A DNA stretch of 64,000 nucleotides from Pseudomonas sp. SCA2728.1_7. GTDB taxonomy: Bacteria > Pseudomonadota > Gammaproteobacteria > Pseudomonadales > Pseudomonadaceae. The notes under the pieces were generated by a model. That model was not told the DNA's origin and ran no database searches. It saw only the letters and a list, made by a program, of their open reading frames with translations. This document shows, piece by piece, positions 44,307 through 63,619 of this stretch. The stretch lies in contig NZ_CP073104.1 of the NCBI RefSeq assembly GCF_018138145.1, positions 5,795,001 through 5,859,000 of the forward strand, in the 5' to 3' direction. How positions within the stretch are numbered: the stretch's first letter is position 1; every line of letters begins with the position of its first letter. The position numbers and the translations under genes were made by a program.

Positions 44307-47060
44307 TCAGGCGCTGATCTTCGCTTGCGCCGCCAGCCGGTTGATCGCGCGCTCCAGTTCTTCCAGCGCTGCCACGGCCTTCGGGTCGTCCTGCTTGAGC
44401 AGGGTTTCGCTGCGCTGACAGGCCGCGCGCAATTGCGGTACGCCGCAATAACGGGTGGCACCGTGCAGGCGATGGACACGTTCGATCAAGGCGTTCTGGT
44501 CGCGGTTTTCGCACGCCGTACGAATGGCTTCGCGGTCGGCTTCCAGTGAGGCGAGCAGCATGGCCAGCATGTCCGCCGCCAGATCTGCCTTGCCAGCGGC
44601 CAGACGCAAACCTTCCTCGTGATCGAGCACTGGCAGTTCATGGTTGCCCGCCGTACTGTCGCTGATGCGCTCCGGTCCTTGATTGCGCAAGGCCAGGCCG
44701 GTCCATTTCAGCACCACTTGCGCCAGTTGCCGCTCGCTGATCGGTTTGGTCAGGTAGTCGTCCATGCCGCTTTGCAGCAGCGCGCGTTTTTCGTTGGCCA
44801 TGGCGTGGGCGGTGAGCGCGACAATCGGCAGCGGCGTGCAATGCCGCTCGCTTTCCCACTGGCGAATGGTTTCGGTGCTTTGGCGGCCGTCCATGCCCGG
44901 CATCTGCACGTCCATCAGCACCAGATCGAAGGACTCGCTCTGCACCGCTTTGACCGCCGCGTAGCCGCTTTCCACCGCCAGTACCTTGGCGCCCATGTCT
45001 TCGAGCAAGGTTTGCACCAGCAGCAGGTTGGCCGGGTTGTCGTCGACACAGAGCACTTTCGGTGCCCGGCTCGACAGCGGTTCGCCCGGCTCATTGCGCG
45101 GCTGGCGCGGGTTGACCAGATCGGCCAAGGCGCGGCGCAATTTGCGCGTGCAGGCCGGTTTCGCTTGCAGTTGACTATGTGGATTGGGCACCGACAAATG
45201 GAACAGCGTCTGTTCGGTGGTCGGGCACAGCACCAGCACTTTGCAGCCGAGGTGTTCGAGGTCCCAGATGTGCTGATTCAAACGCTCGGGCAGCATGTCG
45301 TTGCTGGTGATACCGATGACTGCCAGATCAATCGCCTGATCGGTCTGGTGGGCACCGGTGACACCATTGGTCAAGGTTTCGAGGGTGTTGAATGGCGTGA
45401 CATCGAGGCCACAGTCTTCCAGCTGATGCTGCAAGGCCTGCCGCGCCAGTTCGTGACTTTCCAGCACCGCGACGCGGCGCCCGAGCAACGGCGCGGCCGG
45501 CAAGTCTTCGGCGTCGTCGCGGGTTTTCGGCAGGCTCAGGCTGATCCAGAATTCCGAGCCTTCGCCCGGGGTACTGTCGACGCCGATTTCGCCGCCCATC
45601 TGTTCGATCAGGCGTTTGGAAATCACCAGCCCCAGACCGGTGCCACCCGGTTGCCGCGACAGCGAGTTGTCGGCCTGACTGAACGCCTGGAACAACGCGC
45701 GCACGTCCTGGTTCGACAAACCGATGCCGGTGTCCTGAATGCTGATGCGCAGTTGCACGCTGTCTTCTTGTTCATCTTCAAGCATCGCTCGGGCGACGAT
45801 GGTGCCTTCGCGGGTGAACTTGATCGCGTTACTCACCAGATTGGTGAGGATCTGTTTCAGACGCAGCGGGTCACCGACCAGCGACAGCGGCGTGTCGCGA
45901 TAGACCAGACTGACCAGCTCCAGCTGTTTGGCGTGCGCGGCCGGGGCGAGGATGGTCAGAGTGTCCTGCAACAGGTCACGCAGGTTGAACGGAATATGGT
46001 CGAGCACCAGTTTGCCGGCCTCGATTTTCGAGAAGTCGAGGATCTCGTTGATGATCCCCAGCAGGCTGTCGGCGGATTTTTCGATGGTGCCCAGATAGTC
46101 GAGCTGGCGCGGGGTCAGTTCGCTTTTTTGCAACAGATGGGTGAAGCCGAGAATGCCGTTGAGCGGCGTGCGGATCTCGTGACTCATGTTGGCGAGGAAT
46201 TCGGATTTGATCCGGCTGGCTTCCAGCGCTTCTTTGCGCGCCAGATCCAGTTCAATGTTCTGGATCTCGATGGTTTCCAGGTTCTGGCGCACGTCTTCGG
46301 TGGCCTGATCGACACTGTGCTGGAGTTCTTCGCGGGCGTTTTGCAGGGTGCCGGCCATGCGGTTGATGCCCGACGCCAGTTCATCCAATTCCTGACTGCC
46401 GAGCGGCGGTAAACGCGTTTCCAGATGGCCGTCCTTGAGCTGCGCGACGGCTTGTTTGATCTGACTCAGCGGGCGGTTGATGGTGCGGCCCATGCGCAAT
46501 GCCAAGAGCGCCGCGCCCGCCAGACCGGCGGCAATCAGCAGCAGGCTGGCAAACAGGCTGCGATAACCGCGCAGCAGCATGCCGTTGTGCGACAGTTCCA
46601 ATTCGACCCAGCCGAGCAAACGCTCGGACTCTTCCGGGATCAGTTCGCCAGCGAGATTGCGATGTTTGCCGAATACCGGCATCAGGTAACGCGTCGCGTC
46701 ATTGCCGCTGCGCCGTTGCAAATGCGCGCTGTCGCCGCTCGGCGCCTGATTGAGCATGGTCGGGCCGGCGTGGGCCAGCGGTGAGCGGTCCGGGGCGAGG
46801 AAGGTCACCGCGCGCACGTCCGGTTGTTCAAGGGACTGAGTGGCGATGCGTTCCAGCAGATCGCTGTTGCCGTGGCCCATGGCGGGGGCCACCAGCGGCG
46901 CCAGTTGCTCGGCGATCATCTCGCCACGCTGCATCAATTGGCTCTGCAAGTCGGACTGCTGCGTCCAGGTGAAATAACCACCCAGCACCAGCGCCATCAG
47001 GCTGGTCGGCAACAAGGTCAGCAACAACACGCGACCTTTGATTCCCAGTTTCTTGAGCAC
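44307..47060 (-). CDS. gacS: Hybrid sensor kinase GacS
   Basis: A 917-residue tripartite hybrid kinase that drives GacA and the Rsm small RNAs. TM1 about 10-30, periplasmic region to about 165, TM2 about 168-190, HAMP, HisKA with H294 (ANMSHEIRTPLNGI), HATPase_c (NLVSNAIKFTREGT; GGTGLGLVISKRL), a degenerate receiver region, a true receiver (CVDDNPANLLLVQTLLED; LVLMDVQMPGMDG) and a C-terminal HPt (VHRLHGATRYCG). The GTG at 47060 with GGAG 7-10 bases upstream gives MLKKLGIKGRVLL and puts the phospho-acceptor at H294, the number I know for P. protegens GacS; the ATG at 47111 would add 17 residues. Confidence 0.95.
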   Translation of the reverse strand: MLKKLGIKGRVLLLTLLPTSLMALVLGGYFTWTQQSDLQSQLMQRGEMIAEQLAPLVAPAMGHGNSDLLERIATQSLEQPDVRAVTFLAPDRSPLAHAGPTMLNQAPSGDSAHLQRRSGNDATRYLMPVFGKHRNLAGELIPEESERLLGWVELELSHNGMLLRGYRSLFASLLLIAAGLAGAALLALRMGRTINRPLSQIKQAVAQLKDGHLETRLPPLGSQELDELASGINRMAGTLQNAREELQHSVDQATEDVRQNLETIEIQNIELDLARKEALEASRIKSEFLANMSHEIRTPLNGILGFTHLLQKSELTPRQLDYLGTIEKSADSLLGIINEILDFSKIEAGKLVLDHIPFNLRDLLQDTLTILAPAAHAKQLELVSLVYRDTPLSLVGDPLRLKQILTNLVSNAIKFTREGTIVARAMLEDEQEDSVQLRISIQDTGIGLSNQDVRALFQAFSQADNSLSRQPGGTGLGLVISKRLIEQMGGEIGVDSTPGEGSEFWISLSLPKTRDDAEDLPAAPLLGRRVAVLESHELARQALQHQLEDCGLDVTPFNTLETLTNGVTGAHQTDQAIDLAVIGITSNDMLPERLNQHIWDLEHLGCKVLVLCPTTEQTLFHLSVPNPHSQLQAKPACTRKLRRALADLVNPRQPRNEPGEPLSSRAPKVLCVDDNPANLLLVQTLLEDMGAKVLAVESGYAAVKAVQSESFDLVLMDVQMPGMDGRQSTETIRQWESERHCTPLPIVALTAHAMANEKRALLQSGMDDYLTKPISERQLAQVVLKWTGLALRNQGPERISDSTAGNHELPVLDHEEGLRLAAGKADLAADMLAMLLASLEADREAIRTACENRDQNALIERVHRLHGATRYCGVPQLRAACQRSETLLKQDDPKAVAALEELERAINRLAAQAKISA

Positions 47061-47279
47061 GCCTATCTCCTGCATCCCGCTGATCTGTTGACTCATGCGT
47101 GCATCCGGCACGCGGCATGGGCGCAGTGTAGCGATTTGCTCGCAGGCAATCTCCGGAAAAATGCTGTCAGGGTGGGTCAGGGCGCCGGTGCTCGTTTGTC
47201 AGAAAGGGCAGCCTTGTGTTGCCCGTTGCCCGGCAATCTTGAATAATCGCGCTCAACTGAGAATTACTTGCAGATACTC

Positions 47280-48002
47280 ATGACTCCTGTTTCCGTCGGC
47301 CAGCCACGCATTCTTTCCATCGAAGACGATCCGGTTCTCGGCGCCTATGTTCACGAACATCTGGGCCGCAGCGGCTTTCAGGTGACCTGGTGCCAGAATG
47401 GCCAGGAGGGCCTGAGCATCGCCACACGCCAGCCGTTCGACGTGGTGCTGATGGATATCCTGTTGCCGGGCATGGACGGCTTGCAGGTGTTGACGCAATT
47501 GCGCCAGAGCCATTCGACGCCGGTGCTGCTGATGTCGGCCCTCGGTGCCGAGGCGGATCGCATCAGCGGTTTCCGTCTGGGCGCCGATGACTATTTGCCC
47601 AAACCCTTCAGCATGGCCGAGTTGCATGTGCGCATCGAAGCGATCCTGCGTCGGGTTGCGCTGGATCGGCGCCCGGCCGCGCCTGCGATGCCCGTAGCCG
47701 CCGGTACGCTGAGGTTCGATGACGAACAGTGCGATGTGTTTTTTCGCGAGCAACCCGCCGGTCTGACCCGCAGCGAATTCCGCTTGCTGGAAACCCTCAA
47801 CCGCAATGATGAGGAAGTGCTGAGCAAAGCCTTCCTTTATCAGCACGTTCTGCAGCGCGGCTACGCGGCGCACGACCGCAGTCTCGACATGCACATCAGC
47901 CAGATCCGCCGCAAACTCAAAGCCATCGGTTACACCGAGCGTGAAGTGCGCACAGTGTGGGGCAAGGGTTACGTCTTGAGCGCCGCCGATGAAACGCTCT
48001 GA
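47280..48002 (+). CDS. OmpR-family response regulator, PirR-like by context
   Basis: A 240-residue regulator: ILSIEDDPVLGAYV, D59 in VVLMDILLPGMDG, LGADDYLPKPF, and a winged helix with LTRSEFRLLETLNRN and DRSLDMHISQIRRKL. It occupies the place of pirR between gacS and cysM in P. aeruginosa, but the siderophore receptor gene pirA is absent here, so an iron-enterobactin role is not assured. ATG 47280 is preferred over TTG 47268. It overlaps the kinase by 14 bases. Confidence 0.87.
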   Translation: MTPVSVGQPRILSIEDDPVLGAYVHEHLGRSGFQVTWCQNGQEGLSIATRQPFDVVLMDILLPGMDGLQVLTQLRQSHSTPVLLMSALGAEADRISGFRLGADDYLPKPFSMAELHVRIEAILRRVALDRRPAAPAMPVAAGTLRFDDEQCDVFFREQPAGLTRSEFRLLETLNRNDEEVLSKAFLYQHVLQRGYAAHDRSLDMHISQIRRKLKAIGYTEREVRTVWGKGYVLSAADETL

Positions 48003-49413
48003 ACTGCCGGGGCGGCATTCGTTGTTCTGGAAACTGGCGTTTCTGCTGGTCGCATTTTGTCTGCTGATGATCTGGCTGAGCTGGTCGTGGGGTCGTTATA
48101 TGGAGGAGCGCAACCAGTTCCTCTCCGACGAGGCACGCGGCACGCTCAGCCGTTATGCCGCGCAAGCGGAACAGGCGTGGCAGCACGGCGGCCGCAGCGG
48201 GGTCGATGACTGGTTGCAGAGCATGGAGTTGCGTGAAGCCAGCTGGGTCGGCGTCATCGGCGGCAACTTGCAGTCGCTGAGCAGCGATCCGCTGAATGAA
48301 CAGGAAATCCAGCACCTGACGTTCTTGCGCGGTCTCGACTGGCCGATCCACAAACAGAACCGGCCGTGGCTGCGCATACCTTTTCCCAAAGAACCGTCCG
48401 CCGGCAGCCTGGTGATCGAGCTACCCGAGCGTTTCCTGCCGGGCAAATATCGGCTGTTCTGGCGCGTTATCACTAATGGCGTGATTCCCGGTCTGTTCAC
48501 CTTGTTGCTGTGCGTCGGACTCTATCGCCTGTTGGTTGTGCCACTGAACAACCTGCGCGAACAGGCCAATGCCTGGCGCGCCGATCAATTGAATGTGCGG
48601 TTGTCGAGCGGCATCACCCAGCGCCCGGATGAACTTGGAGAGCTGGCGCGAGCGTTCGACTCGATGTCCGAGCGCCTGCAATCGACCGTTGCTTTGCAAC
48701 AGCAGTTGCTGCGCGACCTGTCCCACGAATTGCGCACGCCGCTGAGCCGCTTGCGCGTGGCCAGCGAAAGTGAACAAGGCCTGGTGCAACTGCGCGAGCG
48801 CATCGGTCGCGAAGTCGACGGTATGCAAAGACTGGTCGAAGACACTCTGCAACTGGCCTGGCTCGATACCGACCGCACGCCGCTGCCCGAGGAAGCGATC
48901 CAGATTCAGGCCCTGTGGGAAATGCTCACGGACAACGCCTGTTATGAAAGCGGCTGGCCGAGCCTGCAATTGCAGTGTTCGGTCGAGGCGTCGTGCTGGG
49001 TGCGTGGCAACCTGAATACGCTGGCGCAGGCGCTGGAGAACATTCTGCGTAACGCGATTCGGCATTCGCCGGCGGGTGGGATCGTGCGGCTTGATGGGCG
49101 GCGCGATGGCGATTACTGGCATCTGTGGCTGGAAGATCAGGGCGGCGGGGTGGCGGAAGGGGATCTGGAGCGGATCTTCTCGCCGTTCACCCGGCTGGAT
49201 GGCTCGCGGCCTGGGGACGGTGGATTTGGCTTGGGGCTGAGCATCGCGCGCAATGCCGTGCAGCGTCAGGGCGGAAGTATTTGGGCGGAGAATGGTGGGG
49301 TGGGGTTGCGGCTGAATTTACGGTTGCTGGCGGATGATTGTGTTGCGCCGTCTGACGCTTTCGCGAGCAGGCTCGCTCCCACATTGGATCTCTGTTCGCC
49401 GCAGATTGTGTGA
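47989..49413 (+). CDS. Sensor histidine kinase, PirS-like by context, with REP-encoded C-terminus
   Basis: A 474-residue kinase: TM1 about 13-33, periplasmic sensor about 35-160, TM2 about 164-184, HAMP, HisKA with H246 (RDLSHELRTPLSRL), HATPase_c with NILRNAIRHSP, EDQGGGV and GGFGLGLSIAR. The catalytic domain is complete by about residue 448. The tail DAFASRLAPTL is translated from a REP arm (49359-49384), so the natural end of the gene has been replaced or extended by a repeat. ATG 47989 lies within the end of the regulator gene. Confidence 0.85.
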   Translation: MKRSELPGRHSLFWKLAFLLVAFCLLMIWLSWSWGRYMEERNQFLSDEARGTLSRYAAQAEQAWQHGGRSGVDDWLQSMELREASWVGVIGGNLQSLSSDPLNEQEIQHLTFLRGLDWPIHKQNRPWLRIPFPKEPSAGSLVIELPERFLPGKYRLFWRVITNGVIPGLFTLLLCVGLYRLLVVPLNNLREQANAWRADQLNVRLSSGITQRPDELGELARAFDSMSERLQSTVALQQQLLRDLSHELRTPLSRLRVASESEQGLVQLRERIGREVDGMQRLVEDTLQLAWLDTDRTPLPEEAIQIQALWEMLTDNACYESGWPSLQLQCSVEASCWVRGNLNTLAQALENILRNAIRHSPAGGIVRLDGRRDGDYWHLWLEDQGGGVAEGDLERIFSPFTRLDGSRPGDGGFGLGLSIARNAVQRQGGSIWAENGGVGLRLNLRLLADDCVAPSDAFASRLAPTLDLCSPQIV

Positions 49414-56665: not shown

Positions 56666-57886
56666 TTACTTGCCTTCCCAGCGCTTCAGTACCAGCGTGG
56701 CGTTGGTGCCGCCGAAGCCGAAGCTGTTGCTCATCACGGTGTTGATGGTGGCGTTCTCGCGGGTCTTGGTCAGCACCGGCAGATCGGCCACTTCCGGGTC
56801 CAGCTCGTCGATGTTGGCGGAACCGGCAATGAAGTTGCCTTCCATCATCAGCATGCAGTAGATCGCTTCGTGAACGCCGGCGGCGCCCAGGGAGTGACCG
56901 GACAGGCTCTTGGTCGAGCTGATTGCTGGTGCCTTGTCGCCGAACACTTCACGCACACCCTTCATTTCCGCGACGTCGCCGACCGGAGTCGAGGTGCCGT
57001 GGGTGTTCAGGTAGTCGATCGGGGTATCAACGGTGGACATCGCCATCTGCATGCAGCGGATCGCGCCTTCGCCACTCGGGGCAACCATGTCGTAGCCGTC
57101 GGACGTTGCGCCGTAGCCAACGATTTCCGCGTAGATCTTGGCGCCACGGGCCAGAGCGTGTTCCAGCTCTTCAACCACGACCATACCGCCACCGCCAGCG
57201 ATGACGAAACCGTCACGGTCGGCGTCGTAGGCACGGGAAGCTTGTTCCGGGGTGTCGTTACGCTTGCTGGACAGAGCGCCCATGGCGTCGAACAGGAACG
57301 ACTGGCTCCAGTGCTCTTCTTCACCGCCACCGGCGAAAACGATGTCCTGCTTGCCCATCTGGATCTGTTCCATGGCGGTACCGATGCAGTGAGCACTGGT
57401 GGCGCAGGCAGAAGCGATGGAGTAGTTCAGGCCCTTGATCTTGAATGGCGTGGCCAGGCAAGCGGAAACGGTGCTGCTCATGGTCCGCGTTACGCGGTAT
57501 GGGCCAACGCGCTTCACGCCTTTCTCGCGCAGGATGTCCAGCGCTTCCATCTGGTTCAGCGTGGAAGCACCGCCGGAGCCCGCCACCAGGCCGGTACGCG
57601 GGTTGGACACTTGCTCTTCGGTCAGGCCGGAGTCAGCAATGGCGTCTTTCATGGCCAGGTAGGCGTAAGCCGCTGCGTGGCCGACGAAGCGATAGATCTT
57701 GCGATCGATCAGCTCTTCAAGGTTGAGGTCAATGGAGCCGGAAACCTGGCTACGCAGACCCATTTCGGCATATTCCGGGTTGAACCGGATGCCAGGGCGG
57801 CTTGCACGCAGGTTAGCGGAGACGGTCTCTTTGTCATTGCCCAGGCACGAAACGATGCCCAGACCAGTGATAACGACGCGGCGCAT
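56666..57886 (-). CDS. fabB: 3-oxoacyl-[acyl-carrier-protein] synthase I, FabB
   Basis: A 406-residue condensing enzyme needed for unsaturated fatty acids. Catalytic C161 ([12 protein letters not shown]), H296 ([11 protein letters not shown]) and H331 ([12 protein letters not shown]). It lies 11 bases after fabA and forms the classical fabAB operon of gamma-proteobacteria with this pathway. Confidence 0.96.
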
Positions 57887-57897
57887 GCGAATAACCC

Positions 57898-58413
57898 TTA
57901 GAAGTTGTCAGTGGAGGTGAACACGCCGACGCGAAGGCCTTCGGCGGTGTAGATTTCGCGACCGTCGACAGTTACCGAACCATCGGCAATGGCCAGGTTC
58001 AGCTTGCCCTTGAGGACGCGTTTGATATGAATGTTGTAGGTGACTTTCTTGGCGGTCGGCAGCACCTGACCGAAGAACTTCACTTCGCCCGAACCCAGCG
58101 CACGGCCACGGCCCGGCAGGCCTTGCCAGCCCAGGAAGAAACCGACCAGTTGCCACATGGCATCCAGACCCAGGCAGCCCGGCATTACCGGATCGCCTTC
58201 GAAGTGGCACGCGAAGAACCACAGGTCAGGGTTGATATCCAGTTCGGCGACCAATTCACCTTTGCCGTACTTGCCACCTTCTTCGCTGATCAGGGTGATG
58301 CGATCGACCATCAGCATGTTCGGGGCGGGCAGTTGCGCGTTACCTGGGCCGAACAGCTCACCGCGACTGCAGCGCAGCAGATCTTCCCGAGTAAAGGCGT
58401 TTTGTTTGGTCAT
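57898..58413 (-). CDS. fabA: 3-hydroxydecanoyl-[acyl-carrier-protein] dehydratase/isomerase, FabA
   Basis: A 171-residue hot-dog-fold enzyme that dehydrates 3-hydroxydecanoyl-ACP and isomerises the product to the cis-3 double bond. Catalytic H70 in [15 protein letters not shown] and D84 in [13 protein letters not shown] 58413 has GGAGCTC upstream on the minus strand. First gene of fabA-fabB. Confidence 0.96.
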
Positions 58414-58660: not shown

Positions 58661-60565
58661 CTACGACACCCAGCGCTGCAGAATCTGCTGCAGATCATTA
58701 CGTTTGAACGGCTTCGCCAGATAATCGTTCATGCCCGCCGACAGACAGGTCTCGCGGTCGCCCTGCAAGGCGTTGGCGGTCAGCGCAATGATCGGCACCT
58801 CACTGCGTCCGGGCAGCAGCCGGATCTGCCGGGTAGCCTCGTAGCCATCGATGATCGGCAACCGGCAATCCATCAGAATCACCTCAAAGTCGCTGCCCTC
58901 GGCACTGCGCACGGCTTGTGCGCCATCGGTGGCAACACTGACAGTAAAGCCCAGACTGCGCAGCATCGCTTCAATAACTGTCTGGTTCACCGGATTGTCT
59001 TCGACCAGCAAGACATTGCGCCCTTCACCATGCTCTTTGCCGTTCAGTGCACGCGGCGCAGCCAGTGGCGGCAGCGCCTGCTTATAGAGTGCCAGCGGAA
59101 TTTCCAGGGTGAACACCGAACCGCGACCTTCCTCGCTCTGCGCGCGCAAGGTGCCGCCCATGCGTTCGGCCAGCGTACGGGCAATCGGCAGACCGAGACC
59201 GGTGCCGCCGTAACGCCGTGAAATCGAACTGTCGGCCTGCTGGAAGGCGTTGAACATCAATTCCAGACTTTCAGAAGAAATACCGATGCCGCTGTCACGC
59301 ACCGAACAGGTGAACCACAGCAGTTCGTGATCCAGCGACTGCCACTGCGCCTCGATGCTGACCCGACCTTGCTCGGTGAACTTAAGCGCATTGCCGACCA
59401 GATTGACCAGAATCTGCCGGATCCGCGTCGGATCGCCCTGCACCTGCAAACCGCGCATGTCATCCGGGATGCGCAGATTCAGCGCCAGCCCTCGCTGTAC
59501 CGCGCTGTGCTGGAACGACTGCGCGCAGGCGCCGATCAGTTCGGCGAGGTTGAACGGGATGTGCTCCAGTTCCAGCTCCGAACGCTCGATGCGCGAGAAG
59601 TCGAGAATATCGTTGATGACTTTCAGCAGGTGTTCGGTGGACTCCGAGGCGAGGGCGGCGTATTCGACCTGCTCCTCGGTCATCTCGGTGGTCTCCAGCA
59701 ATTGCAACATGCCCAGCACACCGTTCATGGGCGTGCGCAGTTCGTGGCTCATCATCGCCAGAAAGTCGGATTTGGCGTTGTTGGCCTTCTCCGCCTCTTC
59801 ACGGGTCTGGATCAGTTGCGCCATGGCTTGATGCTGCTCGCGGCTGGCCTGTTCCAGCGCCTGGGCGAGGTTGTTGATGTGCTGCGACAGCGCGCCCAGT
59901 TCGGTGTCATCGACGATCGGCAGCGGGGTTTTATAGTCGCCGTCCTGAATGGCTTTGACCGCATCGCCGATATTGCGGATCGGCTGCGACAGGCTGCCGG
60001 CCAAGCGCCGCGCCAGAACGAAGGTAAAGAGCAGGGCGAACAGCGCGAGAATCCCGGCCTTGAGCAGGATCTCCTGCTGGCGCTGGCTGAAGGCATCATT
60101 GGACAGACCGACGATCACCCGCCCCAGATAGTCTTCACTGGCCCCACCATTACTGACTTTGCCGTCCTGAAAGAAATCATTGTGCAGGGCGATGCGTTGC
60201 AAGCGTACCGGTGCCTGAAACACTTCGACCTGATGCGGTCGACCGTGCGCCGCCGCGGGTTGTTCGACGTACACCAGAATCCGGTTGGCGCTGTCCTGGA
60301 CTTCGAGAAAACGTACGTTGGGCGTGGCCAGTGTGGCTTTGAGCAGGCTTTCCAGCACTTCGTTGTTGCCGGAAATCACCCCGTATTCGGTGGCGGGTGC
60401 CAGTTGGTTGGCGATCAGTTGGCCGGTGTGGTTCAGCTCCTGGCGCAAATCCTGAATGCGCACGAAGGTGAAGAAGCTGATCAACAGCAGGGTCAGCAAC
60501 AACGCCGGGCCGAGGCTGATCAGCTGGGTGCGGGTATTGATGTCCCAACGGCGACGGAAACTCAT
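58661..60565 (-). CDS. Hybrid sensor kinase, PA1611-like
   Basis: A 634-residue kinase: TM1 about 18-35, periplasmic region about 37-165, TM2 about 168-186, HAMP, HisKA with H274 ([14 protein letters not shown]), HATPase_c ([28 protein letters not shown]) and one C-terminal receiver with D566 in [13 protein letters not shown]. It has no HPt, so phosphate must leave through a separate HPt protein. The position next to fabA and the layout match PA1611 of P. aeruginosa, which binds RetS and so feeds the GacS network. Its ATG overlaps the stop of the gene before it. Confidence 0.9.
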
Positions 60566-61494
60566 GGGCGGTGTTCTCCTTCAGCCAGCGCGCTGGCGAC
60601 AGACGCTTCATTCAGCGGTTCGATACCGAGTGAACGAGCGACCTGCGCATTACTTGAGACTTTAAAACGTGCGGGGTAGAGCGTCCGCGGCCAACTGGCC
60701 GAGGGTTGGTCGAGCAATTGATCGAGCATCGCCAGCCAGTCGTTCTGATCGCTGTACGTGCTGGCCAGGCTGCCGGCGCGGACGAAAGCAATGTTGGGAC
60801 CGACCAGCGCGACTTGCCGTGAGTAGCTGCTGAGCAGCAGGTTCTTCGCGGTTTTCGGGTTGTACAGATCGGGATCGTCGAGCCCCAGCAGTACGTCGCT
60901 GTTCTTCAGCACGGTTTGCAGGGGACGGCTGTCGTGGGTGTTGTCCCAGCGCTCGCTGACGATTTGCAGGTTCAGCGGCGCGGCGGCGAGATTCAGTTCC
61001 TTGAGGAGGAATTCGCTGTGCTCATCGAACAACACGCCGATCCGCCGGGCCTGGGGCAGAATGCGCCGGATCAACTGCAACTGGCGGCTCAGCGGCGGAT
61101 CACTCCACAGCAAACTCAGGTGTGCCGGTTGCGTGCTGCCGAGACGCTGGCGAGCCTGCAAGCGACTGATGCGCAGCACCAGCGTCGCCGGGCCTTGGGT
61201 TTCTTGCAGACGCCAGTCGAGGCTCGGCAGATCGAGCAGAATCAGGCGCAGACTGGCGGGCAGTTTGCCCGGTGCCGGCAGACTGGCCAGCGGTTGGAAA
61301 CGCACATTGTCGGTCGGGCGCAATTCGCTGAGCGCCTGGACGAACGCTTGCACGCCGGGGCTTTCCTCGGCTCCGGTCAACAGAATATCCGCGGCCTGCA
61401 CCGCCACGCCGTGCAGCCAAGCGGTCAGAAACAGACACACCCCGGCCAGCCAGTGGCCAAAGGTTGGCATCTTCCGTGACGGCCCGTAGCGCAT
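60562..61494 (-). CDS. Periplasmic binding-like protein of the ABC_sub_bind type
   Basis: A 310-residue exported protein with a signal peptide ([20 protein letters not shown]). The core resembles type I periplasmic binding folds of the ABC_sub_bind family: [40 protein letters not shown], and [20 protein letters not shown] with [20 protein letters not shown]. No ABC permease or ATPase is nearby; instead it sits between a TonB-dependent receptor and a kinase and overlaps the kinase start by 4 bases. ATG 61494 has GGAG 7 bases upstream; 61470 is an alternative. Confidence 0.8.
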
Positions 61495-61495
61495 C

Positions 61496-63619
61496 CTAGA
61501 ACTCCAGCTCGGCGCTGAAATACATCACTCGACGTTCGTCGTAGTTATTGTCGACGAAGGTGGTCGGCTCATGGTCTAGACGCTGTTGCAGCACGCCAGC
61601 CAGTTGTAACTGCGCTTTGCCCAGCGCGATGCGTTTGGCGATGCGCGTGTCGACCCGCTCGAAGCGGTAACCGTTGAGTGCATTGTCGCCGTAATAGAAG
61701 AGGGCGCTGTTCCAGCCGTGGCCCCAGTCGCGCAGCCAACCGGCCGAACCGCTGTTACGCGAAGTGAACTGCTGATCCAGTGGGTTACTCGCCTCGGCAT
61801 CGACAAAGGCGTAGGTGAAGCGCAAGCGGTCGGCCAGGCTCACGCGCCAGTCGAGCTGGGTTTCCGTGCCGCGAAAACGCGAGCTGTTGGCGTTGCTGGC
61901 GATGTACTGGTTGTTACGCAGCGGCTCGCTGATCATCCCGGTGATCTCGTCGTAGAACAGCTTCACATCCACAGCCAGACCCAACTCGGCGAAATAGCCG
62001 TTGTAGCCCAGTTCCCGTGAACGCATGTGCTCCTGATCGAGATCGCCCGGCCCCCGCGTCTTGACGAAGTAGCGCGCCGAAGACTGGCCGTAGGCGGAAG
62101 GGTGCAGGTTGCTGACCTGATAGCTCCAGTTGACGTTGTTCTCGAACATGTCCGGCGAGCGGATTGCTTCCGAGTACACCGCACGCAGGCCATGGCGCGG
62201 GTTGATCAGGTAATTGACGGCAAATCGCGGGGTCAGCGAACTGCCGATCAGTTGCGTGTTTTCAAACATCGCACCGCCCTGCAACAACCAGTGTTCCGTG
62301 GCACGCCATTCCAGTTGGCCGAACGCGCGCCACGTGGTGTCGTCCAGCGTGCCATTGAAGTAGGTTTCGGAGTCGGCGCGGTCGTAACGATAGTTCATGC
62401 CGCTGACCAGGCGCAGGCTGTCGGACAGGCTGAGGGTGTCTTGCAATTCGAGGTCGTAGCGCGATTCCCGGGCGCTCTGGTCGATGTCGCCGCACAGGGT
62501 TCGGCTGGCGCCGTTACGCCATTGCTCGAGCACCTGATTGGCCAGGGCCATTTCCTGCGGTGTGCCGGGCGCCGCGCCGGGGCCGGTGAACCGGGTGATG
62601 TTGCGCGCCAGACGTTCGGTGTAATTCGGGTTGAGCTGCCACAGTTGCGTCAGCTCGGGGCTGAATGACACCTCGGCATCGCAGGCGCGCCAGGTTTGCT
62701 GGCGATCCCAGTGTTGCGCCGAGCCTTGTATATAAAGGCTGTGTTCCGGGTTGATGTCGAGGTTCCAGCGCACCGAACCGGCGTAATCCTTGGCCACCAC
62801 GTCGGAATTATTCCCGGCGGCGGTAATCCCGGAGAACACCGGGCGGTAGGTGTACGGTCGCTGGTTGGTCCCATCCTTGGCGTTGACCTGCCAGTCGAGG
62901 CTCTGGTTATCGCTGAGGGTGTGGGTGACCGCAAGACTGAAACGGTTCAAGCGGCGGCTGTCACGGTAATCGGCACCGCTGCGATCGCTGTCGAAGCCAT
63001 CGTCTTCCTGGCCAGACAACGACAGGCGCAAATCACCGCCATTCCAACCGGTGCCCTGGCTGGCATAAAAGTCATTGATGCCGCGCTGGCCACGGGTGTA
63101 CTTCAGGCGTGTGCCGTGGCTGTCCGCCGGGTGGCGGGTGATGATGTTGACCACTGCCATCAACGCGTTGGCACCGTAACTGACGGTGTTGGGGCCGCGA
63201 AACACTTCGATGCGCTCGATGTCTTCCATGGCCACCGGAATATCGCTCCAGTCCACCGTCGACAAACCGGCGCGGTACACCGAGCGGCCGTCGATCAGCA
63301 CTTGCATGCGCCGCGCTTCGCTGGCGTTGGTGCCGTGGTAATTGACCGCTGCCTGATTGCCATTGATGTTGCCGACCATCATCCCCGGCACCAGCCGCAG
63401 CAGTTCGCTGATGTCGCGGGCACCGCTGGCGTTGATCAGTTCGCTGTCGAGTACGGTCATGCTCCCCGGCACCTCCGCCGGCGTCTGTTTCAGGCGCGTG
63501 GCCGTCAGCACCTGCGGCAGCGCTTCGCTGTCGACAAACAGATCGTCCGCCTGCAAAACCGGGCTGAACAGCAGCGCCAGCAACAGAGACGAACGCGGAG
63601 GAAGAGAACCGACGGACAC
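61496..63619 (-). CDS. TonB-dependent outer membrane receptor
   Basis: A 707-residue receptor: signal peptide to about residue 24, a TonB-box-like QVLTATRL region, plug domain about 40-155 (VPGSMTVLDSELI, SELLRLVPGMMVG, MQVLIDGRSVYR, IERIEVFRGPNTVSYGANAL) and a 22-strand barrel ending in the aromatic FSAELEF. Plug and barrel are close to the vitamin-B12/catecholate group, but no ligand is evident. No N-terminal signalling domain, so it is not a FecA-type sigma-regulator transducer. First gene of a three-gene operon; no Fur box seen upstream. Confidence 0.88.
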   Translation of the reverse strand: MSVGSLPPRSSLLLALLFSPVLQADDLFVDSEALPQVLTATRLKQTPAEVPGSMTVLDSELINASGARDISELLRLVPGMMVGNINGNQAAVNYHGTNASEARRMQVLIDGRSVYRAGLSTVDWSDIPVAMEDIERIEVFRGPNTVSYGANALMAVVNIITRHPADSHGTRLKYTRGQRGINDFYASQGTGWNGGDLRLSLSGQEDDGFDSDRSGADYRDSRRLNRFSLAVTHTLSDNQSLDWQVNAKDGTNQRPYTYRPVFSGITAAGNNSDVVAKDYAGSVRWNLDINPEHSLYIQGSAQHWDRQQTWRACDAEVSFSPELTQLWQLNPNYTERLARNITRFTGPGAAPGTPQEMALANQVLEQWRNGASRTLCGDIDQSARESRYDLELQDTLSLSDSLRLVSGMNYRYDRADSETYFNGTLDDTTWRAFGQLEWRATEHWLLQGGAMFENTQLIGSSLTPRFAVNYLINPRHGLRAVYSEAIRSPDMFENNVNWSYQVSNLHPSAYGQSSARYFVKTRGPGDLDQEHMRSRELGYNGYFAELGLAVDVKLFYDEITGMISEPLRNNQYIASNANSSRFRGTETQLDWRVSLADRLRFTYAFVDAEASNPLDQQFTSRNSGSAGWLRDWGHGWNSALFYYGDNALNGYRFERVDTRIAKRIALGKAQLQLAGVLQQRLDHEPTTFVDNNYDERRVMYFSAELEF

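What the first reader, a model, noticed from the sequence alone, without database searches (positions are those of the whole stretch)
58661..63619. Receptor, periplasmic binding-like protein and hybrid kinase in one overlapping operon
Three leftward genes are joined by a 1-base gap and a 4-base overlap: a TonB-dependent receptor, an ABC_sub_bind-like periplasmic protein without transporter, and a PA1611-like hybrid kinase with a small periplasmic domain. The set spans outer membrane, periplasm and inner membrane. An economical reading is a trans-envelope sensing relay in which a ligand imported by the receptor is bound by the periplasmic protein and signalled to the kinase, which in P. aeruginosa works with RetS and the Gac pathway.
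Basis: inference. Interest (0 to 1): 0.7.

Follow-up and report, generated by a model that had tools for sequence, protein, structure and literature searches.

The report
Receptor-to-kinase relay across cell envelope
Three tightly coupled genes in a Pseudomonas encode an outer-membrane receptor, a periplasmic binding protein and a membrane kinase that look like one dependent chain, which suggests how an outside chemical could feed a well-studied lifestyle switch of these bacteria.

Summary
In detail: a TonB-dependent receptor (TBDR), an ABC_sub_bind-like binding protein (SBP) and a PA1611-type hybrid kinase (HK) form a tight operon between gpsA and fabAB. Comparative evidence supports a relay. 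(1) Losses are nested: none of 74 genus genomes without the SBP shows this TBDR, while the HK stays in 58 of 60 such loci inspected. (2) Where SBP and TBDR are gone, only the HK's periplasmic domain evolves faster (p=0.0004; other domains p>=0.2). F131 in a loop of that domain is in 99% of HKs with an SBP and 10% without, the best of 634 columns, also in independent pairs. (3) Distant Gamma- and Betaproteobacteria carry the same order with kinase or diguanylate-cyclase outputs. Vibrio VpvABC, published with the same import-bind-signal model (PMC12456836), appears to be the cyclase version. Not shown: SBP-HK contact, the ligand, any effect on Gac/Rsm. Against: the loop motif is post hoc and genus-specific, and a few SBP-bearing loci without TBDR also show the faster domain. 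A new variant of a known kind.

The parts
61496..63619 (-). TonB-dependent receptor, 707 aa, GTG start; outer-membrane entry of the module
   Evidence: no STN domain among Pfam matches at E<=0.1; closest curated families TOL_0244 and BtuB-type, far below cut-off; the 16 other places in the genome that match it score at most 51.7 bits
60562..61494 (-). periplasmic binding protein (ABC_sub_bind/TrpX-like, SBP), 310 aa
   Evidence: model pLDDT 90.3; top folds 3lkv, 3lft (L-Trp), 6hnj/6hni (CD0873), TM-scores 0.53-0.64; no other relative in the genome at E<=10
58661..60565 (-). hybrid histidine kinase, PA1611-type, sCache_4-HAMP-HisKA-HATPase-REC, no Hpt found
60071..60457 (-). kinase residues 37-165, periplasmic sensor domain (boundaries approximate)
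   Evidence: only domain that evolves faster where SBP and TBDR are lost; model
60164..60193 (-). kinase residues 125-134, candidate SBP-docking loop (I125, L127, D130, F131, Q133)
   Evidence: columns 131, 125, 130 and 127 are the four best of 634 for association with SBP presence; poorly predicted loop between strands 113-121 and 146-155
60562..60565 (-). 4-base overlap of SBP stop and kinase start (translational coupling inferred)
   Evidence: same overlap in 70 of 70 measurable loci
57898..58413 (-). fabA, downstream neighbour, possibly on the same transcript
   Evidence: no terminator-like site between HK and fabA; PAO1 RT-PCR in PMC3462791 (passages)
56666..57886 (-). fabB, followed by a terminator-like stem at 56642-56612

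Best explanation
The operon is an input module for a membrane kinase. The TBDR brings a scarce molecule through the outer membrane (inferred from family). The SBP, a two-lobed TrpX-type protein with no transporter gene recognised beside it, binds it in the periplasm (fold modelled, ligand inferred). The SBP docks on the HK's small periplasmic sCache_4 domain through the loop around residues 125-133 and shifts the HAMP-kinase state (comparative evidence, not shown physically). The kinase passes the signal on through its receiver domain or by pairing with other kinases; for the P. aeruginosa namesake PA1611, pairing with RetS is published to relieve GacS and raise rsmY and rsmZ expression (not tested here). 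Related TBDR-SBP-sensor sets elsewhere drive unorthodox kinases or diguanylate cyclases.
For: Order and spacing kept in the genus and beyond. Nested losses: no TBDR match in 74 SBP-less genomes; loci with intact SBP but no TBDR in several lineages; HK kept in 58 of 60 SBP-less loci. Rate shift confined to residues 37-165 (median 0.57 vs 1.10 per unit of marker distance, p=3.6e-4; other domains p=0.20-0.99). Loop goes with the SBP (F131 0.99 vs 0.10; 9 independent pairs, 8.3 same way, 0.0 opposite, median p=0.0078; DF motif 7.1 and 0.0, p=0.016) and less with the TBDR (DF motif, 10 pairs, 4.9 same, 1.1 opposite, p=0.22). 18 of 18 distant module TBDRs hit the operon TBDR best, 198-319 bits, against at most 97 for the 16 other TBDR-like stretches compared. 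Published parallel VpvABC (PMC12456836, section 14 and passages).
Against: No physical or genetic test. In the few loci with SBP but no TBDR (10 rows, 4 pairs) the periplasmic domain is as fast (1.06 per unit of marker distance) as in kinase-alone loci (1.07), so the speed-up is not tied to SBP loss alone. The loop motif was found by scanning, so its choice is post hoc. The exact D-F is not universal: SBP-bearing outgroup genera of the family show other residues where the loop could be read, and 4 of 80 SBP-bearing rows of the genus lack it. The faster evolution could reflect a changed ligand rather than a lost partner. Two distant loci carry TBDR-SBP with no adjacent sensor gene and one has its kinase upstream instead.
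Confidence: 0.6

Rival explanations
1. The TBDR and SBP only deliver or concentrate a ligand in the periplasm, and the kinase senses the free ligand itself with its sCache_4 domain. No SBP-kinase contact exists.
For: The sensor is a GacS/BarA-type single cache domain and its fold search reaches ligand-binding CitA domains at E about 0.01. Faster sensor evolution after loss would follow if the ligand supply vanished, also in loci that keep the SBP but not the TBDR.
Against: The strongest covarying site lies in a poorly predicted loop between strands, and the loop motif follows the SBP better than the TBDR.
Confidence: 0.18
2. The SBP is a ligand-free regulatory partner, like YfiR for YfiN (recalled analogy), and the TBDR or the envelope state is what it reads.
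For: Loci without TBDR persist with open SBP frames in several lineages. The SBP evolves faster than the TBDR at equal marker distance.
Against: Best folds are small-molecule binding proteins, some solved with ligand. No TBDR without SBP was found in the 74 genomes searched.
Confidence: 0.13
3. It is a plain nutrient-uptake operon (TBDR plus SBP, permease elsewhere) that happens to share a transcript with a kinase.
For: The kinase survives without the two genes in 58 of 60 loci; in the passages seen PA1611 acts with no role for the other two (PMC4866733).
Against: No transporter gene recognised beside it (by eye). The SBP is followed by a sensor gene in 29 of 29 of the best distant loci, and after its loss only the kinase's periplasmic domain speeds up.
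Confidence: 0.09

Closest known systems
VpvABC of Vibrio cholerae (VpvA 'porin', VpvB periplasmic binding protein, VpvC diguanylate cyclase)
   Same: Same three compartments, gene order and proposed import-bind-signal logic. The published survey names Undibacterium among complete carriers, and the eight Undibacterium loci found here are TBDR-SBP-cyclase.
   Different: Here the output is a hybrid kinase.
PA1611 hybrid kinase of the RetS-GacS network
   Same: Same place beside fabA (PMC3462791 names PA1611, PP4173 and PSPTO2212 there) and a hybrid-kinase plan.
   Different: The passages seen treat the kinase alone or as a PA1612-PA1611 operon; none names an input partner.
GacS/BarA unorthodox kinases
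   Same: sCache_4 sensor, HAMP, HisKA, HATPase, REC; best curated match BarA, below cut-off.
   Different: No Hpt domain found here; no SBP-like gene was recognised beside gacS in the window (ORFs of 260 aa or more, by eye).
LuxPQ and TorT-TorS (binding protein plus kinase)
   Same: Two-lobed binding protein paired with a kinase; LuxP is among the fold hits (1jx6, rank 23).
   Different: No dedicated TBDR and another sensor domain type there (both recalled).
FecA-FecR-FecI type TBDR signalling
   Same: A TBDR at the head of a trans-envelope path.
   Different: No STN domain in this TBDR; no sigma or anti-sigma gene recognised beside it (by eye).

Membership tests
VpvABC-type three-component module | outer-membrane protein, periplasmic binding protein and membrane sensor in one operon, in that order | tested here: met
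VpvABC-type three-component module | diguanylate cyclase output | tested here: not met
   HisKA-HATPase-REC instead of GGDEF
VpvABC-type three-component module | sequence homology to VpvA and VpvB of V. cholerae | not tested
   record not in the collections
PA1611 orthologue | position directly upstream of fabAB | tested here: met
   PMC3462791 passages
PA1611 orthologue | hybrid kinase without Hpt | tested here: met
   for the window's protein; that PA1611 itself lacks Hpt is recalled
PA1611 orthologue | interaction with RetS and with HptB | not testable with these tools
   two 7TMR-DISMED2 places (the RetS/LadS sensor type) exist in the genome, no more
GacS/BarA unorthodox kinase | C-terminal Hpt domain | tested here: not met
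   15 of 20 members of A3 (window included) match Hpt, the window's does not
ABC importer binding protein | cognate permease and ATPase next to it | tested here: not met
   ORFs of 54-64 kb read by eye, none recognised
PF04392 ABC_sub_bind | profile match over gathering score | tested here: inconclusive
   18 vs 25.9 bits for this protein; 21 of 23 relatives match at E<=0.01; fold agrees
FecA-type signalling TBDR | N-terminal STN domain | tested here: not met
   only Plug and barrel at E<=0.1
binding protein-kinase pair (LuxPQ-like) | physical contact of binding protein and sensor | tested here: inconclusive
   rate shift and covarying loop; no complex modelled

The most novel reading that the evidence does not exclude
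A transferable input cartridge, a specific TBDR plus SBP plus sCache_4 domain with an SBP-docking loop, is shared by hybrid kinases and c-di-GMP enzymes across Gamma- and Betaproteobacteria. In Pseudomonas it supplies the missing chemical input of the PA1611/RetS/GacS lifestyle switch, and lineages that dropped it have rewired the orphan kinase's sensor.
Probability: 0.43. Interest if true: 0.78.

Novelty: new variant of a known kind. Interest (0 to 1): 0.61.

Why it matters
The ligands of the GacS sensor are described as unknown (PMC7695008, abstract passage). This gives a concrete route by which an external molecule could reach that network, two genes to delete, a loop to remove and an SBP with which to fish for the ligand. 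It also suggests that VpvABC and the PA1611-type kinase belong to one kind of envelope-spanning module.

Tried and rejected
A cobalamin riboswitch or other curated RNA element: none at gathering score in 56-64 kb. SBP homologues in viral contigs: 7 stretches matched a pattern, none encoded a relative. A V. cholerae record for direct comparison: not held. First idea that the orphan kinases' low identity was sensor-specific: the raw comparison showed general divergence; only the per-distance analysis isolated the periplasmic domain. First marker tree and kinase tree, with positives drawn only from high-scoring hits, needed 2 changes and 1 change; adding low-scoring positives raised this to 11, so the early picture was a sampling effect. 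Linking P. protegens PFL_1740 (a Tn-seq hit for weaker root attachment, PMC13390462, passages) to this TBDR: in an unnamed relative (G260) this TBDR is the only BLAST match in 155 kb, 117 called genes from fliE against 103 locus tags in Pf-5, but a CheA-like gene lies 24 called genes from fliE against 33 tags, so the scale agrees poorly. Left as a lead, not used as evidence. The kinase version in print: searches gave me no title, abstract start or passage that names the TBDR or SBP as input of PA1611. Several listings were capped (30 of 84 papers, 20 of 32, 15 of 23), and only open-licence PMC text is searched, so absence from print is not shown.
Full report
WHAT IS THERE. The window lies in a 6.78-Mb single-contig genome. 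On the minus strand, between divergent gpsA and fabA-fabB, stand a TBDR (61496-63619), an SBP (60562-61494) and a hybrid kinase (58661-60565). The TBDR stop and SBP start are one base apart; SBP and kinase overlap by four bases. The SBP is a weak match to PF04392 and has no other relative in the genome at E<=10. No permease, ATPase, sigma or anti-sigma gene was recognised by eye among the ORFs of 54-64 kb. A terminator-like stem follows fabB and none lies between kinase and fabA. [quoted passage not shown]

CONSERVATION IN THE GENUS. In 298 genomes drawn from the genus the SBP matched in 224. All 74 without it were searched for the TBDR: 0 of 74 at E<=1e-60; that search scored at most 15 candidates per genome. 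The same search over 77 of the lowest-scoring SBP genomes found it in 68, which serves as positive control; the other 147 SBP genomes were not all searched. Of 40 loci sampled from the SBP matches listed with places, 38 have a complete TBDR in order, one a remnant, one none; SBP and kinase adjoin in 40 of 40. Thirty-one further loci, chosen by their TBDR match, all show TBDR-SBP-kinase in order. The nine low-scoring SBP genomes without a TBDR match were inspected: six have an open SBP frame before the kinase, two have a cut-down SBP (frame about 140 aa), and one match (G195, E 9.9e-4, several stops) was spurious and left out of later counts. Two of these (L145, L148) lie at a contig start, so there TBDR absence rests on the genome search alone. 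In L146 an internal deletion leaves the N-terminal part and, by eye, the very end of the SBP, and the 137-aa frame still overlaps the kinase start by four bases. Of the 74 SBP-less genomes 72 gave a fabA anchor; 60 of these 72 loci were fetched. None of the 60 has SBP or TBDR; the kinase is present in 58, not found in one (L173) and a remnant in one (L176). So in what was inspected the losses are nested: TBDR only with SBP, SBP only with kinase.

NUMBER OF EVENTS. On a tree of gpsA, fabA and fabB DNA from 120 loci the SBP state needs 11 changes and the TBDR state 11. Complete operons lie on both sides of the midpoint root, which together with the identical position points to an old operon lost repeatedly; the tree itself cannot tell gain from loss.

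PARTNER-DEPENDENT CONSTRAINT. Using nearest-neighbour pairs without reuse, amino-acid difference per unit of marker distance was compared between loci with all three genes (33 pairs) and loci with the kinase alone (23 pairs). Periplasmic domain: median 0.57 vs 1.10, Mann-Whitney p=3.6e-4. TM1 p=0.61, TM2+HAMP p=0.62, HisKA p=0.20, HATPase p=0.75, HisKA+HATPase p=0.83, REC p=0.99. The first 40 kinase-alone loci give p=0.0016 (17 pairs); the 18 later ones alone give p=0.015 from only 4 pairs. The ratio of periplasmic domain to kinase core differs too (p=0.0052 for all, p=0.049 for the first set). A result that blurs the picture: loci with SBP (whole or cut down) but no TBDR, 10 rows and 4 pairs, have a periplasmic rate of 1.06, like kinase-alone loci (1.07) and above complete operons (0.71); so loss of the TBDR may be enough to loosen the domain. 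Entropy per column agrees with the main result: mean rise 0.63 bits in the periplasmic domain, 0.30 in TM1, 0.18 or less elsewhere.

A CANDIDATE DOCKING LOOP. Scanning all 634 columns for association with SBP presence, the top five (131, 125, 130, 127, 151) are periplasmic. F131 is found in 0.99 of 80 kinases with an SBP (whole or cut down) and 0.10 of 58 without. D130-F131 together: 67 of 70 with all three genes, 7 of 8 with SBP but no TBDR, 2 of 2 with the cut-down SBP, 1 of 58 without SBP, of which 17 have gaps there. In 9 independent pairs F131 goes with the SBP 8.3 times on average and never against it (median p=0.0078); the DF pair 7.1 and 0.0 (p=0.016); with TBDR presence as the trait (10 pairs) DF goes along 4.9 and against 1.1 times (p=0.22). 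The motif was picked from the scan, so these p-values are optimistic. Against generality: in other genera of the family that have TBDR and SBP the loop, where my pattern could read it, has other residues, so the exact residues belong to this genus. Of 50 sensors in A8 (window plus 49 named distant ones) 43 fit a loose acidic pattern; it is permissive and post hoc, and some of its hits fall outside the loop. The model of kinase residues 1-250 (50 sequences, pLDDT 85.8) places the segment in a poorly predicted loop between two strands.

THE BINDING PROTEIN. The model (63 sequences, pLDDT 90.3, pTM 0.82) is a two-lobed binding protein. Best folds: V. cholerae 3lkv, S. pneumoniae 3lft with L-Trp, C. 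difficile CD0873 6hnj/6hni, TM-scores 0.53-0.64; sequence profiles agree. LuxP is at rank 23. Ligand identity cannot be read from this; an aromatic amino acid or relative is only a first guess.

BEYOND THE GENUS. In the family, 59 of 119 genomes (13 of 19 genera) match the SBP profile, some very weakly; all 18 newly fetched loci, four of them of the same genus, have TBDR before and kinase after the SBP. In the class, 81 of 369 genomes (65 of 274 genera, the window's own included) match at E<=1e-5. In the 29 best distant loci, some of which share a genus, the next gene is a sensor protein in 29 of 29 (27 kinases, 2 with GGDEF) and a TBDR precedes in 23; three of the other six begin at a contig start. 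Longer stretches of 20 of these show TBDR-SBP-sensor in 18. Pfam on 20 sensor proteins (the window's and 19 of those 20; one split frame left out): sCache_4 18, HAMP 19, HisKA/HATPase/REC 18, Hpt 15, GGDEF and EAL 2. Twenty weaker class hits: sensor gene directly downstream in 16, TBDR directly upstream in 14, two TBDR-SBP pairs without an adjacent sensor, one with the kinase upstream, one with neither found. A named-genome scan kept 80 of 116 loci (Undibacterium, Methylotenera, Rhodoferax, Sulfuricella and others): TBDR upstream in 64 of 80; downstream 28 kinases, 26 cyclases, 20 with sensor similarity but neither motif, 6 other, by motif and BLAST only. Seventeen of those 20 were aligned and read as kinases of the SHDLRQP type by their consensus. 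For 18 distant module TBDRs the operon's TBDR is the best relative in the window's genome in 18 of 18, 198-319 bits against at most 97; the comparison covers the 16 other places that one search found by similarity to the operon TBDR, not always as whole genes. The receptor thus looks like a particular subfamily that travels with this SBP.

RELATION TO KNOWN SYSTEMS. V. cholerae VpvABC is described as porin, periplasmic binding protein and diguanylate cyclase, with the model that VpvA imports a signal sensed by VpvB and VpvC; the authors report vpvAB without vpvC in many species and suggest that vpvAB is a sensing unit later linked to vpvC (PMC12456836, section 14 and passages). Our cyclase-type loci in Undibacterium, a genus they list as a complete carrier, tie the two together. 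The kinase version in Pseudomonas is not in the passages I saw. PA1611 is published as an inducer of rsmY/rsmZ that counters RetS (PMC4866733, passages), with its receiver domain modelled on HptB (PMC7467158, listing and passages). That PA1613 is listed among TBDRs of P. aeruginosa is my recollection and comes from no call.

VERDICT. The claim on Gac output is borrowed from the P. aeruginosa namesake. Shown: gene order and coupling, nested co-loss, domain-specific constraint, module reuse. Inferred: import, binding, docking, kinase control, ligand.

Noticed in passing
window 44307-47111 (-): gacS itself lies about 11.5 kb from this operon. mazG is within about 7 kb of the SBP gene in 25 of 38 genomes checked, about 150-180 kb away in 7, and megabases away in 6 (MazG places against SBP places).
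   Followed up: partly
L145 364-678, L146 3590-4003: Cut-down SBP genes (137 aa in L146) that keep the start; in L146 the frame still overlaps the kinase start, as if kept for translational coupling.
   Followed up: partly
L173, L176: Two SBP-less genomes have also lost the kinase at this place (not found in one, remnant in the other).
   Followed up: partly
L354, L359: TBDR-SBP pairs without an adjacent sensor gene, an ORF with a GGDEF motif lying within about 2 kb; like the published vpvAB-only loci.
   Followed up: no
L236, L267, L283 and others (alignment A5): Modules whose output reads as a kinase of the SHDLRQP type: a further output class besides BarA-like kinases and cyclases.
   Followed up: partly
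G260 loci L309-L316: P. protegens PFL_1740, a Tn-seq hit for reduced root attachment in the same table as gacS/gacA (PMC13390462, passages), might be this TBDR; gene distances fit only roughly.
   Followed up: partly
window 47989-49413 (+): A gene that reads as an orthodox sensor kinase sits between gacS and a cysM-like gene (by eye).
   Followed up: no
loci with SBP but no TBDR (L083, L096, L140-L144, L148, with L145, L146): Their kinase periplasmic domain is as fast as in kinase-alone loci although the SBP or part of it remains (4 pairs).
   Followed up: no
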